A stretch of 64,000 bases of DNA from Ignavibacteria bacterium (GTDB lineage: Bacteria > Bacteroidota > Ignavibacteria > Tepidaquicellales > Tepidaquicellaceae): NCBI GenBank assembly GCA_028714695.1, contig JAQTLX010000006.1, forward strand, positions 62,001-126,000, given 5' to 3'. Of the stretch, positions 10,461-18,277 are shown in pieces (the first letter of the stretch is position 1; each line of letters begins with the position of its first letter). The position numbers were made by a program, and so were the translations under genes. The notes below the pieces were generated by a model. That model ran no database searches and had not been told where the DNA came from. It saw nothing but the letters and a program-made list of their open reading frames with translations.

Positions 10461-12842
10461 ATGAATATCCGTTTATCAACACTGTCAGTTTTATTGTGCT
10501 GCTTTCTACTCAGCACATCATCTGCTCAGAATAAAAACCTTACCACATTTGTATCAGAGGAGCAGACAGTAAACGGTTTCAGCAATTTTTTTCTCGGTGT
10601 CGATTATTCCGAACCTTATATAGTAACAAATCCACGCGACCAGTTAAACATCATCTGCGCTTTCATCAACGGGTTTTATTACACTCTTGACGGTTTGAAT
10701 TGGCGCAGCATTGAACCACCGAACAGCGGTGATCCTTTTCTCGCATTTGACAGCTTGGGGAATGCATACAATACTCCCTCCCCGCCATGGACTTATACAA
10801 TTATGTCTGTAAGGAAATCCACGGACAAAAGAATTACCTGGTCCGGCAGCAATCTGATAACAAATATGACTGCTGATAAGCCAAGTATCTGCGCAAATCA
10901 ATCAGGCGGTATTTACTCAAATTATCTGTATTCCGGATGGCAATCCAATGGCGCTAATGACGGAACACATTTTTCGAGGTCCATAGATCAAGGCGCTACA
11001 TGGTCGCCTGAATTAAATTTAAATCCAGGCAGCAACTTTTTTCCTTACCTTGCTGTCGGGCCTGCCCCATTAGTTTCCGGCGGTATTTTATATTATGGAA
11101 CTAATAAAGGCACCTATGGTCCTATAGATACTATATATCAGGTTACTATTAAAAAATCTTCCGATGCTGGAATTACATTCTCAAATGAAATTATAGTATC
11201 GGATGTGCAAATTCCATTAAATTTAAAAGGCGGCGGAATTAAAACAAACCCATGTATACAAATGGCCGCAGACAACAGTTATGGATTGTACAGGGGAAAC
11301 GTTTATATTGTTTATACGGGTAAAGGTTCCGGTACCGATAAAGCGGATATTTTCTTTACCAAATCGACAAATTACGGTAATAACTGGTCTGCTCCGATGA
11401 GATTAAATGACGACAATACATTGAACGACCAGTGGATGCCTGCTATCTCAGTTGGCAATAACGGAAAAATATATATAGTATGGTATGATTCACGAAATGA
11501 CCCTCAAAACAATCTGACTTTATTGTACGGGACAGTATCTTCAAACGGTGGTACTTCGTTTTCTCCCGATTTTCCGGTATCCACGATAGAATATAATCCG
11601 TTAGAAGGTACACTTTATGGATTCATGGGAGAATACCTCGGTGTTTCGGCAACAGGAAATTCCGCAATTGCAGCATGGTATGATTCAAGAAATCATAATT
11701 ATGGCAGTTATGTCGGATACCTTCCTGATTTCGCAATGACGGTAACTCCTCAATTGTTCCTCGGAAGCAACGACAGTGCAACGGCAATGGTAAAGGTACC
11801 CGCAATTAAAGGACCATACACAGGCAATGTAAAATTTTCCTGTTCGTTGGATTCAATACCTTCGCAGGGAAATATCTCATATAATTATCTTACAAAAGAT
11901 TCAATTGCAGTCATTCCTGATTCGTTATTACTGAAAATTAAACTTACGAACGTAACTTCAGCTGGTAAATACAGATTACGAATCACAGGAAGAAACATGG
12001 CATCAGGCGTGCCGGTTCACAGCAGGATTATTTATTTAATGATTAATACATCAATGCTTAATATCGGAACAAACAGAAACGGCAGAGCAGGTTTCAGAGT
12101 TAACGATACATTGTATAACACACAACAAAGGCTTGTAATACCTAACGGCACAAATGTAACTGTACAGGCGATGAGCCCTGTTACTGTTTCTTCGAATACG
12201 AGATATATTTTCACAAGTTGGTCCGATTACGGAGATACGGCTCACAATTTCGTAATAAATAGTGAAAAATATCTTACCGCTTATTACAAAACGCAATTTA
12301 AATTATTTATAAATTCGTCTGTCGGTAATACATTCGGCGGAAATATTTTTTATGACTCATCGCAAACATTTACTTTCGGAGTTAATTCAAAAAGGTTTAC
12401 GTATAACGGTCTGTTATACAGTTTTGCCGGCTGGAGCGGGGTTGGAGCGAATTCATACACAAGTCAGGATAGCACAGGGAATGATACAACTATTACGCTT
12501 CCTATGTATAACTCTATCGTTGAAGTTGCAAGGTGGGTGCATACGACGGGTATTTCTCAAATCTCTGCTGAAATTCCCGGTGATTATAAACTTTACAATG
12601 CATACCCGAATCCGTTCAATCCGTCGGTTAATATTAAATTTGCATTACCGCAAAATGCACATGTAATATTGAAGATATATGACATCCTCGGAAAAGAAGT
12701 TGCAATATTACTGAATGAAAAGATGAATGCGGGATTATATACGTTTCAATGGAATGCAAACGGATTACCAAGCGGAATATATTTTTACAGAATAGGGACT
12801 GATAAATTCACAGATACAAAGCGTATCCTGTTGATTAAATAA
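10461..12842 (+). CDS. Secreted sialidase-like (BNR repeat) protein with T9SS sorting domain
   Basis: The 793-residue protein has a signal peptide (first 22 residues, ...STSSAQ) and an N-terminal six-bladed propeller-like half (about 30-420). That half contains Asp-box/BNR-type repeats such as SRSIDQGATWS, KSSDAGITFS, KSTNYGNNWS and VSSNGGTSFS. An Ig-like/InlB-type middle (about 430-690) follows, and the last 85 residues are a type A T9SS sorting domain (YPNPFNPSVNIKF ... GIYFYRI ... KRILLIK). It should be exported across the outer membrane and anchored or released at the surface. The fold is that of sialidases, but catalytic residues cannot be assigned, so glycan hydrolysis is not shown. A GAGG ribosome binding site precedes the ATG. 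Confidence 0.9.
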   Translation: MNIRLSTLSVLLCCFLLSTSSAQNKNLTTFVSEEQTVNGFSNFFLGVDYSEPYIVTNPRDQLNIICAFINGFYYTLDGLNWRSIEPPNSGDPFLAFDSLGNAYNTPSPPWTYTIMSVRKSTDKRITWSGSNLITNMTADKPSICANQSGGIYSNYLYSGWQSNGANDGTHFSRSIDQGATWSPELNLNPGSNFFPYLAVGPAPLVSGGILYYGTNKGTYGPIDTIYQVTIKKSSDAGITFSNEIIVSDVQIPLNLKGGGIKTNPCIQMAADNSYGLYRGNVYIVYTGKGSGTDKADIFFTKSTNYGNNWSAPMRLNDDNTLNDQWMPAISVGNNGKIYIVWYDSRNDPQNNLTLLYGTVSSNGGTSFSPDFPVSTIEYNPLEGTLYGFMGEYLGVSATGNSAIAAWYDSRNHNYGSYVGYLPDFAMTVTPQLFLGSNDSATAMVKVPAIKGPYTGNVKFSCSLDSIPSQGNISYNYLTKDSIAVIPDSLLLKIKLTNVTSAGKYRLRITGRNMASGVPVHSRIIYLMINTSMLNIGTNRNGRAGFRVNDTLYNTQQRLVIPNGTNVTVQAMSPVTVSSNTRYIFTSWSDYGDTAHNFVINSEKYLTAYYKTQFKLFINSSVGNTFGGNIFYDSSQTFTFGVNSKRFTYNGLLYSFAGWSGVGANSYTSQDSTGNDTTITLPMYNSIVEVARWVHTTGISQISAEIPGDYKLYNAYPNPFNPSVNIKFALPQNAHVILKIYDILGKEVAILLNEKMNAGLYTFQWNANGLPSGIYFYRIGTDKFTDTKRILLIK

Positions 12843-13202
12843 TTACATTTTTGATTTTTCGGAATTATCTTTAGCAACGTGTTTAATAATCTTTGTGAGG
12901 AGTTGTACAGGTACGGGTTTTCCGGTCGGTATCCGGATTGCGGATTTTGAGAGTTCATATTGTTTTAATTCTTCTTTAAAGGCTTGAAGATATTTCGGGC
13001 GGACGAATACGGAGTAATGATTTTTGAAAGCGGCAAACCATGCAACAATTCCATAATATTTGAATGCAGGCATGCCGTAACTTATTAATTCTTCGGCATC
13101 GGGTACTGCTTTTCTGATTAGTTGACGTATTTTCGTTAGTTTTGGCTGTACGTCTTTAGATTGCATAGCGATGTATTCGTCTATGGTTTTTGGTTTATTC
13201 AT
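12843..13202 (-). CDS. DUF1801 (YdhG-like) family protein
   Basis: A 119-residue cytosolic protein starting with the family hallmark TIDEYIAMQSKDVQPKL and continuing with ...ISYGMPAFKY and ...RPKYLQAF, matching the small DUF1801/iron-chaperone-like family of frataxin-related fold. The biochemical role is not established. Its 3' end abuts the end of the convergent sialidase-like gene. It sits upstream of two SRPBCC genes on the same strand, separated from them by a hairpin-rich spacer. Confidence 0.88.
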   Translation of the reverse strand: MNKPKTIDEYIAMQSKDVQPKLTKIRQLIRKAVPDAEELISYGMPAFKYYGIVAWFAAFKNHYSVFVRPKYLQAFKEELKQYELSKSAIRIPTGKPVPVQLLTKIIKHVAKDNSEKSKM

Positions 13203-13562: not shown

Positions 13563-13991
13563 TTATTTATTCTCTTCTGTATATTTCTTGAAGTTGTCTA
13601 AAATTGACTGCCAGCCGGTTCTCTGCTGCTCATGCGAAAACACATTTTCGGCTTCGAACGTTTCGACTACATTTGTTTCATCGCCGTTTTGCGAGAAAAT
13701 GACTTTCACTTTCCTGCCATCGCCTATTTCGTATTCAATCAGTTCGTTGGTTTTCATTGTTGTATATGTGCCTTCGAAATCGAAACCGGCACTTCCGTCT
13801 TTTGCTTCCATTCTGCTTTTAAATTTACCGCCCGGTCTTAAATCATTTTCTGCCCACGGTGTCTGCCAGTCGGCGCTTGCAAAATTCCATTTTGTAATAT
13901 GTTCCGGCGAAGTCCAGTATTCCCAGACTTTTTCAACGGGGGCTTTTATGTTTGTTTGCACTATTATTGTTGTTACATCTTTATTTTCCAT
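13563..13991 (-). CDS. AHSA1-type SRPBCC domain protein
   Basis: The 142-residue protein is a single START/Bet v1-like domain. It begins with the TNIKAPVEKVWEYWTSPEHITKWNFAS signature (given here in outline), contains LRPGGKFKSRM in the middle, and ends with the amphipathic helix GWQSILDNFKKY. Proteins of this family bind small hydrophobic ligands; no specific ligand can be named. The gene lies 22 bp downstream of a second SRPBCC gene on the same strand, suggesting a small operon of related proteins. Confidence 0.92.
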   Translation of the reverse strand: MENKDVTTIIVQTNIKAPVEKVWEYWTSPEHITKWNFASADWQTPWAENDLRPGGKFKSRMEAKDGSAGFDFEGTYTTMKTNELIEYEIGDGRKVKVIFSQNGDETNVVETFEAENVFSHEQQRTGWQSILDNFKKYTEENK

Positions 13992-14013
13992 GTGAGTAAT
14001 TTTTATTTATGTA

Positions 14014-14448
14014 TTATTGCTTCTCAAGAAAATTCTTCAAACTTTTTCCTAATATGGAATCCCAGCCTTCCGTGAAACTTTCTCTGCTTAAATCCGGATT
14101 ATCCTGTGCGAATGAATCTATTCCTATATGCGTTAGTTTAAGGCGCGTATTGTTATCTTCGGGAAACAATTCCCAGGTTACAAATGAATCTCCGGGCATT
14201 CCTTTGAATGTCCATTCATAAACAATTCTTTTAAACGGCAGAACTTCTGTTACTTTCCATACATGGAGATAGTCAATGTTTTTTTCGCGTATATTGAATT
14301 GAGTCTCAAAACCTACGACAGGTTCAAATGATTCCAGTTCTTTGAAATACCAGTATTTCATTGTCCTGTAGTCTGTGATTGCATCCCAGACTTTATCCAG
14401 TGGCGAGTTGTAAATATGCTCAATGATGACGGGTTCGTTGTTTTTCAT
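14014..14448 (-). CDS. AHSA1-type SRPBCC domain protein, second copy
   Basis: A 144-residue START-like domain protein with IEHIYNSPLDKVWDAITDYRTMKYWYF at the N-terminus (motif outline), a central ...WKVTEVLPFKRIVYEW strand pair and a C-terminal helix EGWDSILGKSLKNFLEK. It is related to its downstream neighbour but clearly diverged, so this is not a recent duplication. Ligand unknown. Confidence 0.92.
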   Translation of the reverse strand: MKNNEPVIIEHIYNSPLDKVWDAITDYRTMKYWYFKELESFEPVVGFETQFNIREKNIDYLHVWKVTEVLPFKRIVYEWTFKGMPGDSFVTWELFPEDNNTRLKLTHIGIDSFAQDNPDLSRESFTEGWDSILGKSLKNFLEKQ

Positions 14449-14669: not shown

Positions 14670-15371
14670 TTATTTTCCGTCCATTGCTGCTTTAAGAGAT
14701 TCCAGGTCCCTTGCAATCTGTATTCCGGGTAATTTTACAACGGCGCCTATTTGCGCTATAAAACTTCCCTGCACATCACCCGTTTTGTAAGTTGTAAAAC
14801 CGATGCGGTACAAACCCATAACGAGTGACTTGCTTGAGTTATTGACATCGCTGGTTATGCGCATGCATGAATTATATTTTTTCCCTGACGGCTGCGCGGG
14901 CAGTTCGTTCGAATCATCATTCTGAGCGTACATTTTCCAGGATGTAGTTTTTGCATTTGCCACAAAGTTTGAATCGTTCGTAATCAGGTCGGCTCTTTCG
15001 AAAGAAATCCATGTATCGAAATACTTCTTTCTTTCATTGAAATAATCCGAATAGTCGGACGTTTTAAAATCCTCTTTCCCCGGACTTAACTGCGGCGGAA
15101 TCGGGGAGACCATTCTGATACCTATTTCAGGTGCCGCTACGGGAATCCACAGATAAAGATAATAATATTTTTTTCCGCCTCGTTCTTCATCCGGAACCGA
15201 ACCTTCCTTTATGTAGCCGAAATAACTTATAACATCGAGATAAGGAATGCGTATTTCCTGACCGAATACAGTCTTTTTCCCGAGGTCCGCGTCAAAGGCG
15301 GGAAGTTTCTGCGCGTTAATTCCTTTGATGAAGAAAAGTGAAACAATAAAAAAGAAAATTAATTTTTTCAT
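14670..15371 (-). CDS. LipL32-like secreted surface protein
   Basis: The 233-residue protein resembles Leptospira LipL32 along most of its length. Shared blocks are VISYFGYIKEG (48-58), YYLYLWIPV (70-78), IRMVSP (85-90), YFDTWISFER (117-126), KYNSCMRI (165-172) and GLYRIGFTTYKTGDVQGSF (186-204). Residues matching the calcium ligands reported for LipL32 are present by eye: Asp119-Thr120, Asp152-Asp153 and Tyr166. LipL32 is a lipoprotein, but this protein has an ordinary signal peptide ending ...GINAQ with no lipobox Cys, so it is probably soluble in the periplasm or secreted. Its function is not known. It stands alone between an intergenic repeat element and a small gene on the same strand. 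Confidence 0.85.
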   Translation of the reverse strand: MKKLIFFFIVSLFFIKGINAQKLPAFDADLGKKTVFGQEIRIPYLDVISYFGYIKEGSVPDEERGGKKYYYLYLWIPVAAPEIGIRMVSPIPPQLSPGKEDFKTSDYSDYFNERKKYFDTWISFERADLITNDSNFVANAKTTSWKMYAQNDDSNELPAQPSGKKYNSCMRITSDVNNSSKSLVMGLYRIGFTTYKTGDVQGSFIAQIGAVVKLPGIQIARDLESLKAAMDGK

Positions 15372-15466: not shown

Positions 15467-15949
15467 TTAATTATTTATTGATTGATTTGAATTCTTTGCT
15501 GCGATTACTTTAAACAATGCCGTACATTTCCTTCCCGCGTCATCATTGCCTAATCCAATGAACCATGTGCCGCGGCTGCTTGCACGGTACAGAAAGCCAA
15601 GCATTTCCACTCCGGATTCTTCAATTAAATTACTCATATCGGAATCTTTCCATTCTCGAACTTCGGAAATATCCGTCCATTGCGCCGCGCCCACTCCCTG
15701 TTCATCTTTATCAGTGAATACACCCCAGAACAAAAACCTTTTGGTAATACAAATCTCAGTATAGTTTGTTTTGATTTTTCCAAAGAAACCTTTTTTGAGA
15801 TTCGCGGTTTCAAAACAATTTAGAATTTCATTTTCAATATTGCCGAGTTTATGCTCTTCGGCATATTTGGTGATGATTTTTATGAACGCAGGTTTCATTT
15901 CGTCATATCTGCGTTCTACAGTTGAACGTGTATATTCGCTTTTTTTCAT
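15467..15949 (-). CDS. Hypothetical protein, 160 aa
   Basis: Not recognised. The protein is cytosolic (no signal peptide or membrane segment). It has a helical N-terminal third (residues 1-50, rich in Lys/Glu) followed by strands (TEICITKRFLFWGVF, AAQWTDISEV, TWFIGLG) in a pattern that could be a pleckstrin-homology-like domain of bacterial type. That fold assignment is an inference from strand spacing only. It is on the same strand as the LipL32-like gene, 95 bp upstream of it. Confidence 0.7.
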   Translation of the reverse strand: MKKSEYTRSTVERRYDEMKPAFIKIITKYAEEHKLGNIENEILNCFETANLKKGFFGKIKTNYTEICITKRFLFWGVFTDKDEQGVGAAQWTDISEVREWKDSDMSNLIEESGVEMLGFLYRASSRGTWFIGLGNDDAGRKCTALFKVIAAKNSNQSINN

Positions 15950-16201: not shown

Positions 16202-18277
16202 TTATTTTATAAGAACCATTTTCTTTGTCTGAATGAAATCGCCTGACTTAATTCTGTAAAAATATACTCCGCTTGAGAAAGATGATGCATTCCATTGTGT
16301 TTCGTAAACACCGGGCTGCAGTTTATTATCCAATAGTACGGCTAATTCCCTTCCTGTAATGTCGTACACGGAAATTTTCACAGAAGTATATTTAGGTATT
16401 TCAAATTTTATTGTTGTTACCGGGTTAAACGGATTAGGAAAGTTCTGTTCAAGTGAATAATTTGAAGGTAATACAGAAACAACGCCGTTTTCGAAAGTTA
16501 ATCCGTCGTTAGTTGTTGCTATAATCGTACCTGCCGAGCCGACTGCCCATGCATATCCGGTTGATCTGCCGTAAACGCAGTACATTGGAGTATGTTCGGT
16601 ACTCATACCGGCGACATTATAACCTCTCACCTTGCACTCCAAAGAATGATTTACAACGTACCATGCTTTATTGTAACTCATACAACTGATAGATCTGACA
16701 TTTGGAGGCGGACTATCGGTAGTATCTCCGGCATATATATCAACCCAATTTTCCCCGCCGTTGGTTGTTTTCGAAACAGAAGTCACGCCGGCGGAAAATC
16801 CTGTCATTGAATTAGCGAAGCAAATTGATCTGCAGGTTCCTGTCGATTTCTGCACCCATGTTTCACCGCCGTCAGTAGTTTTATATTTCCCTCCGTTGAC
16901 ACCGAGCCAGCCGGTATTCTCATCCATGAAGAACACACTATTACCCGATTTAGTATCTATTCCGTATTTTCTAATCCAGTTGTTTCCTCCGTTAGTAGTT
17001 TTAAGTATAAGACCTGTATCGCCTGTAATCCATCCTGTGTTTGAATTCAGAAAATAAACCGACCTCAGTGCCGATGTAACTCCGCTTTGCTGGGTAGTCC
17101 AGGCAGCGCCGCTGTTTACGGTTTTAATAATTATTCCGCTGTCGCCGACAACCATAGCCGTGACGGAACTTATTGCAAAAACGGACTGATAATTGTATGT
17201 AGACTGAGTATTCTGTGCTGTCCAGTTTCTCCCGCTGTTTGTCGACCTGAAGATGGCGCCGTTGTCGCCAACAGTCCATCCTGAATAGTTATTCGCGAAA
17301 TGTACTGATCTCAGAGATATGTTAGGAATCCTTTTTTCATAAGTCCAGTTCGAACCTCCGTTGATGGTTCTAATAACTGCCCCGCTGTCGCCGACGGTAT
17401 ATCCCGTATTTACACCCGGAAAAACAACCCACCTCAGGTTTCTTGTATCGGAGTTTACCTGCTCTATCCATTCCTCGCCGCCGTTTGTGGATTTAAGAAT
17501 CGCGCCGCCGTTGCCTACAACATATCCGGTATTAAGGTTCGGAAAATAGACTGAATTAAGATCTGTCGTTGTGTAATACTGCAATGTCCAGTCGGTACCT
17601 CCGTTTGTAGTGTAGAGCACTGCTCCGTTATTGCCCGTAATCCATCCCGTGGTTGAATTCCTGAAATAAACAGAGTTAAGATTATCGGAGGAACCTGTAT
17701 ATTGGGATTCCCAGTTGGCGCCGCCGTCAGTGGATTTATAAACAACTCCCGTATCTGCTGCAATCCATCCTGTATTGCCATTGATGAAGAAAATATCATT
17801 GACAGCAAGACCGGTAATTTGAGATTTTGACCATGTATTGCACCCGTCAGTGGTTTTGCATATAACACCGTTTGAGGCTAATGTCCAGCCGGTATTTTGA
17901 TTAAGGAAATAAAACTTTCTGGAGGTACTGTCCAGAATTGACAGTGATGACCAGTTAAGTCCTCCATTGGTACTTTTCAGCATAGCAGATTTGTTACTTG
18001 CAGCAGGCATATATCTTAATGTATAGCCTGTTTTCGCATTAAAAAACTTTATTGAATAGCCGTGATAATTAGGAAGGCCGTTAATTGTAATCCAGTTTCT
18101 TCCGCCGTCCGTAGTTTTAAAAATCGAATATTTAAAACCGGATACCCAGCCGGTCTGAGAATTAATAAACGACGCGCAATAAAGATTTTTATTTGTTGGA
18201 TATGGATTCTGCCAGAACCATTGGGAATAACAATTAGCAGAGACAAACAATGCGAGAAGGAGAATTATCTTTTTCAT
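16202..18277 (-). CDS. Secreted YCF48-like beta-propeller repeat protein with T9SS sorting domain
   Basis: The 691-residue protein has a signal peptide (MKKIILLLALFVSANCYS). About a dozen repeats of roughly 42 residues follow, each of the form TGWxxGxxGxIxKTTNGGxNW. This is the YCF48/HCF136 photosystem-assembly-like propeller repeat, which is common in secreted proteins of this bacterial group. The final 80 residues form a T9SS type A sorting domain (FPNPFNPVTTIKFEIP ... GVYFYRI ... KKMVLIK). In these bacteria such proteins have no link to photosynthesis; a role in adhesion or extracellular binding is only a guess. A terminator follows closely. Confidence 0.92.
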   Translation of the reverse strand: MKKIILLLALFVSANCYSQWFWQNPYPTNKNLYCASFINSQTGWVSGFKYSIFKTTDGGRNWITINGLPNYHGYSIKFFNAKTGYTLRYMPAASNKSAMLKSTNGGLNWSSLSILDSTSRKFYFLNQNTGWTLASNGVICKTTDGCNTWSKSQITGLAVNDIFFINGNTGWIAADTGVVYKSTDGGANWESQYTGSSDNLNSVYFRNSTTGWITGNNGAVLYTTNGGTDWTLQYYTTTDLNSVYFPNLNTGYVVGNGGAILKSTNGGEEWIEQVNSDTRNLRWVVFPGVNTGYTVGDSGAVIRTINGGSNWTYEKRIPNISLRSVHFANNYSGWTVGDNGAIFRSTNSGRNWTAQNTQSTYNYQSVFAISSVTAMVVGDSGIIIKTVNSGAAWTTQQSGVTSALRSVYFLNSNTGWITGDTGLILKTTNGGNNWIRKYGIDTKSGNSVFFMDENTGWLGVNGGKYKTTDGGETWVQKSTGTCRSICFANSMTGFSAGVTSVSKTTNGGENWVDIYAGDTTDSPPPNVRSISCMSYNKAWYVVNHSLECKVRGYNVAGMSTEHTPMYCVYGRSTGYAWAVGSAGTIIATTNDGLTFENGVVSVLPSNYSLEQNFPNPFNPVTTIKFEIPKYTSVKISVYDITGRELAVLLDNKLQPGVYETQWNASSFSSGVYFYRIKSGDFIQTKKMVLIK

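What the first reader, a model, noticed from the sequence alone, without database searches (positions are those of the whole stretch)
14670..15371. A LipL32 relative outside Leptospira, without a lipobox
Six sequence blocks match LipL32, the major surface lipoprotein of pathogenic Leptospira, and the reported calcium ligands appear to be kept (D119-T120, D152-D153, Y166). Unlike LipL32 there is no lipobox Cys, so it should be soluble. This offers a non-spirochaete member for asking what the fold does when it is not a lipoprotein.
Basis: partly seen in the sequence, partly recalled or inferred. Interest (0 to 1): 0.65.

Follow-up and report, generated by a model that had tools for sequence, protein, structure and literature searches.

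The report
Unlipidated LipL32-family protein in Ignavibacteriota
The gene encodes a secreted, probably calcium-binding relative of LipL32, the main antigen of the bacteria that cause leptospirosis; it is an ordinary member of a large, already known family in environmental bacteria, most of which lack the lipid anchor that LipL32 has.

Summary
The ORF at 14670-15371 on the minus strand (233 aa) is a LipL32-family protein: Pfam PF12103 at 234.7 bits (cut-off 25), PDB LipL32 at E 2e-32, and an AlphaFold model (pLDDT 86.6) whose only significant PDB matches are the LipL32 entries (best: calcium-bound 2wfk, TM 0.73). D119, T120, D152, D153 and Y166 align exactly with the published Ca2+ cluster D132, T133, D164, D165 and Y178, and are conserved in essentially all relatives. 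There is no lipobox; the N-terminus is a Sec/SPI signal peptide (INA|Q).

The implied novelty does not hold. LipL32 orthologs outside Leptospira, including Bacteroidetes, were published in 2014 and one was tested genetically. A genome scan kept 80 relatives, 76 of them in Bacteroidota or Ignavibacteriota. In 71 such proteins with readable N-termini no lipobox was found and nearly all show A|Q. Spirochaete members mostly have a lipobox (8 of 10). This protein is a typical member of an unlipidated branch.

Best reading: a soluble periplasmic Ca2+-binding jelly-roll protein; its partner is unknown. The mildly new point is the lipidation split, which fits reports that LipL32 lies below the cell surface.

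The parts
14670..15371 (-). LipL32-family (PF12103) protein, 233 aa
15312..15371 (-). Sec/SPI signal peptide, residues 1-20 (MKKLIFFFIVSLFFIKGINA), predicted cleavage before Q21
   Evidence: sequence; A|Q junction shared by 68-69 of 71 Bacteroidota/Ignavibacteriota relatives; Q-rule literature PMC5837995. By eye and pattern, no SignalP run.
14715..15257 (-). PF12103 domain, residues 39-219
15012..15017 (-). D119-T120, aligned to LipL32 Ca2+ ligands D132-T133
14913..14918 (-). D152-D153, aligned to LipL32 D164-D165
14874..14876 (-). Y166, aligned to LipL32 Y178
15467..15949 (-). 160-aa protein without Pfam match, same strand just upstream; a relative lies near the gene in the nearest genome (L007), with one gene between them
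   Evidence: a neighbour only, no shown functional link

Best explanation
This is an unlipidated member of the LipL32 family (PF12103) in a free-living Ignavibacteriota bacterium. It is exported by Sec, cut by signal peptidase I before Q21 (the new N-terminal Gln probably becoming pyroglutamate) and stays soluble in the periplasm, because it has neither a lipobox nor a T9SS C-terminal sorting domain. There it folds as the LipL32 jelly roll and holds one Ca2+ through D119, T120, D152, D153 and Y166, which stabilises the fold and shapes a binding face. Shown by computation: family, fold, kept Ca2+ residues, no lipobox, no T9SS tail. Inferred: periplasmic location and Ca2+ binding. Speculative: that its job is Ca2+-dependent binding of an envelope component rather than a eukaryotic matrix.
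For: PF12103 234.7 bits; PDB LipL32 E 2e-32; model pLDDT 86.6, pTM 0.82; 8 Foldseek matches at E <= 0.001, all LipL32, best 2wfk E 9.5e-20, TM 0.73. D119, T120, D152 and D153 identical in 80 of 80 aligned sequences, Y166 in 79 of 80. No lipobox in 71 Bacteroidota/Ignavibacteriota proteins with readable N-termini, 68-69 with A/G/S|Q; Ignavibacterium album has a predicted Q-value of 77% for SPI substrates (PMC5837995). No Por_Secre_tail match, although two neighbours in the same window have one. LipL32 itself is reported as subsurface (PMC3544172). Relatives come from lake, fen, groundwater, pond and sludge MAGs (record titles), which argues against a dedicated animal-matrix adhesin.
Against: No experiment on any unlipidated member was found. 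Deletion of the P. tunicata ortholog reduced binding to ECM and colonisation of algae (PMC4080168), so a surface-attachment role remains possible. Release to the outside by an unknown route cannot be excluded. No conserved operon partner points to a function. Of the pathogen protein's DDDDDGDD acidic stretch this protein keeps only NDDSNE, so Ca2+ affinity may differ.
Confidence: 0.7

Rival explanations
1. It is a surface or secreted adhesin, like the reported role of LipL32 and PtlL32, released across the outer membrane and bound to the cell or biofilm matrix.
For: The ptlL32 knockout loses ECM binding and algal colonisation (PMC4080168); recombinant LipL32 binds collagens and fibronectin (PMC5566480).
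Against: No T9SS tail, no lipobox, habitats without an obvious animal host; a lipL32 mutant of Leptospira is reported equally adherent and LipL32 subsurface (PMC3544172).
Confidence: 0.2
2. It keeps the fold but has a role unrelated to LipL32, for example in envelope stress or storage, with the Ca2+ site purely structural.
For: Only about 36% identity over the structural alignment; below the NCBIfam LipL32 equivalog cut-off (126.6 against 300); different gene neighbourhoods in different genera.
Against: The Ca2+ residues and the YNS, GLYRIGFTTYK and GSF blocks are kept throughout the family, so one conserved biochemical activity is simpler.
Confidence: 0.1

Closest known systems
LipL32 of pathogenic Leptospira (PDB 2WFK, 2ZZ8, 3FRL; NCBIfam NF038394)
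   Same: Fold (TM 0.73), PF12103 domain, five Ca2+-cluster residues at equivalent positions, exported
   Different: No lipobox Cys, shorter acidic loop (NDDSNE instead of DDDDDGDD), lacks the NPPKSFDDLKNID insert, well below the equivalog cut-off
PtlL32 of Pseudoalteromonas tunicata and the orthologs of Gardiner et al. 2014 (PMC4080168)
   Same: Non-Leptospira member of the same family; that list already includes Bacteroidetes (Cellulophaga, Formosa, Ulvibacter)
   Different: That study treats the proteins as lipoproteins; the Bacteroidota and Ignavibacteriota sequences read here have SPI signals. The PtlL32 sequence itself was not available here.
Unlipidated PF12103 proteins of Flavobacterium, Cellulophaga, Tenacibaculum and others (L012-L086)
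   Same: SPI signal, mostly ending A|Q, no lipobox, same NDDS(S/G)E loop
   Different: 42-62% identity; other gene neighbourhoods

Membership tests
PF12103 (Pfam Lipl32) | Profile score over the curated cut-off of 25 bits | tested here: met
   234.7 bits, profile 2-179 of 179; all 48 members of A3 match
PF12103 (Pfam Lipl32) | LipL32 jelly-roll fold | tested here: met
   All 8 Foldseek matches at E <= 0.001 are LipL32
LipL32 proper (NCBIfam NF038394 equivalog) | Score over the equivalog cut-off of 300 bits | tested here: not met
   126.6 bits
LipL32 proper | Lipobox Cys (Cys20 in Leptospira), lipid anchor | tested here: not met
   Only Cys is C169; no upstream start possible
LipL32 proper | Ca2+ cluster D132, T133, D164, D165, Y178 | tested here: met
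   All five identical in sequence alignment; geometry not measured, binding not tested
LipL32 proper | Ca2+ binding and ECM/TLR2 binding | not testable with these tools
   Needs purified protein
T9SS substrate | C-terminal sorting domain (Por_Secre_tail) | tested here: not met
   No match, while 10461-12842 and 16202-18277 do match
Sec/SPI substrate following the Bacteroidetes Q-rule | n-region, hydrophobic core, cleavage exposing Gln | tested here: met
   MKKLIFFFIVSLFFIKGINA|QK by pattern; cleavage itself not shown

The most novel reading that the evidence does not exclude
The unlipidated periplasmic form is the main and perhaps ancestral state of the LipL32 family, and the spirochaete lipid anchor was added later to keep an already periplasmic Ca2+-binding protein at the inner face of the outer membrane; LipL32's matrix binding would then be secondary.
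Probability: 0.25. Interest if true: 0.5.

Novelty: new member of a known kind. Interest (0 to 1): 0.33.

Why it matters
[quoted passage not shown] A large soluble branch in harmless environmental bacteria, several of them culturable, gives a simple system to ask what the conserved Ca2+ site and fold do without a lipid anchor and without an animal host.

Tried and rejected
Single-sequence AlphaFold gave a useless model (pLDDT 41); the 48-row alignment solved this. No relatives were found in viral contigs or plasmids, so no sign of a phage or plasmid vehicle. Recent horizontal transfer into Ignavibacteriota was considered: the distribution is patchy (6 of 44 genomes of the order; 6 of 391 of the class) and the six sequences form one clade (99/98), but an AU test does not reject Bacteroidota as a clade of its own (p 0.465), so transfer is not shown. 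A conserved operon partner was sought and not found: the gldF-gldG-dnaN-(gene)-mnmE order in Flavobacterium is specific to that group. GC content around the gene is unremarkable. No promoter or terminator signal above chance. Gammaproteobacterial members could not be fetched, so their lipobox state is unknown here.

Full report
Observation. The ORF lies at 14670-15371 on the minus strand, ATG start, 233 aa. It matches PF12103 over the whole profile (234.7 bits, cut-off 25) and the three crystallised LipL32 constructs at E 2e-32 to 3e-32. In three separate alignments D119, T120, D152, D153 and Y166 fall on LipL32 D132, T133, D164, D165 and Y178, the residues named in the literature as the calcium cluster (PMC5566480; PMC8951592).

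Structure. With an alignment of 48 family members (A3) AlphaFold2 gives pLDDT 86.6 and pTM 0.82, with pLDDT below 50 only at residues 16-20, the end of the signal peptide. Foldseek against the PDB returns eight matches at E <= 0.001, all LipL32, the best being the calcium-bound form 2wfk (E 9.5e-20, TM 0.73, rmsd 3.6, 36% identity).

No lipid anchor. The N-terminus MKKLIFFFIVSLFFIKGINA|QKLP has the form of a Sec/SPI signal; the only Cys is C169; the reading frame is open only three codons upstream. The exposed Gln fits the Bacteroidetes Q-rule, which by published prediction also holds in Ignavibacterium album (77%; PMC5837995). No T9SS sorting domain is found, although two neighbours carry one. 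The protein is therefore expected to be periplasmic and soluble; this is inference.

Relatives. A genome scan found 95 loci and kept 80: 5 Ignavibacteriota, 71 Bacteroidota, 4 Spirochaetota. D119, T120, D152 and D153 are identical in all 80 aligned sequences and Y166 in 79; one further spirochaete-phylum protein, L095, has FDP instead of FDT. Of 71 Bacteroidota/Ignavibacteriota proteins with complete N-termini none has a lipobox and 68 (69 counting a late start in L062) show A/G/S|Q. Among ten spirochaete-phylum proteins eight have a lipobox and two (L096, L097) do not.

Tree. With 67 rows, Bacteroidota plus Ignavibacteriota form one side of a branch with 98/95 support, and the six Ignavibacteriota proteins one clade with 99/98. 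The eight lipobox rows need 1 change when only labelled groups are counted, and 3 when all rows count, because of L096 and L097. The root is not known, so gain and loss of the lipobox cannot be told apart. Transfer into Ignavibacteriota is not shown (AU p 0.465). Distribution is patchy: 6 of 44 genomes in the order, 6 of 391 in the class, 9 of 150 in the genus of Flavobacterium stagni, 8 of 296 in the spirochaete phylum.

Function. Neighbouring genes differ between genera. In Flavobacterium the gene sits between dnaN, downstream of gldF and gldG, and mnmE; nothing ties it to them. LipL32 has been reported as largely subsurface, with a mutant equally adherent to ECM (PMC3544172), whereas deletion of the P. 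tunicata ortholog reduced ECM binding and algal colonisation (PMC4080168). The lack of any anchor or surface-export signal in the Bacteroidota branch favours a periplasmic role for the fold in these bacteria. I commit to a soluble periplasmic Ca2+-binding protein (0.7 for location and Ca2+ binding together); the ligand is unknown.

Novelty. Non-Leptospira LipL32 orthologs, Bacteroidetes included, were published in 2014 (PMC4080168). The present protein belongs to PF12103 but not to LipL32 proper: it fails the NCBIfam equivalog cut-off (126.6 against 300) and lacks the lipobox. I found no paper in the held library that points out that the Bacteroidota branch is unlipidated, but the library is incomplete. 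It is a new member of a known kind.

Noticed in passing
window 13563-14448: Two tandem AHSA1/SRPBCC-domain proteins (13563-13991 and 14014-14448, minus strand), followed by a DUF1801 protein at 12843-13202.
   Followed up: no
window 15467-15949: 160-aa protein without Pfam or NCBIfam match, same strand and just upstream; a relative lies near the LipL32-like gene in the nearest genome (L007:3803-4282), there with a further gene, a 191-aa protein that looks like a pentapeptide-repeat protein, in between.
   Followed up: partly
window 10461-12842 and 16202-18277: Two large T9SS-tailed proteins (BNR-like; YCF48/PSII_BNR repeats) flank the region.
   Followed up: no
L097 1315-2130 and L101 1378-2094 (same contig, G454:C137): A spirochaete-phylum genome with two adjacent PF12103 genes, the second very divergent (81 bits); neither shows a clear lipobox.
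   Followed up: partly
L079, L083 and genomes G785, G877: Broken or frameshifted copies of the family in Flavobacteriia and Tenacibaculum records and in the genus of Flavobacterium stagni, which may be pseudogenes or assembly errors.
   Followed up: no
L029 1278-8248: In Flavobacterium the family member lies in a conserved order gldF-gldG-dnaN-(gene)-mnmE, with a gene weakly like universal stress proteins on the opposite strand between the family member and mnmE.
   Followed up: yes
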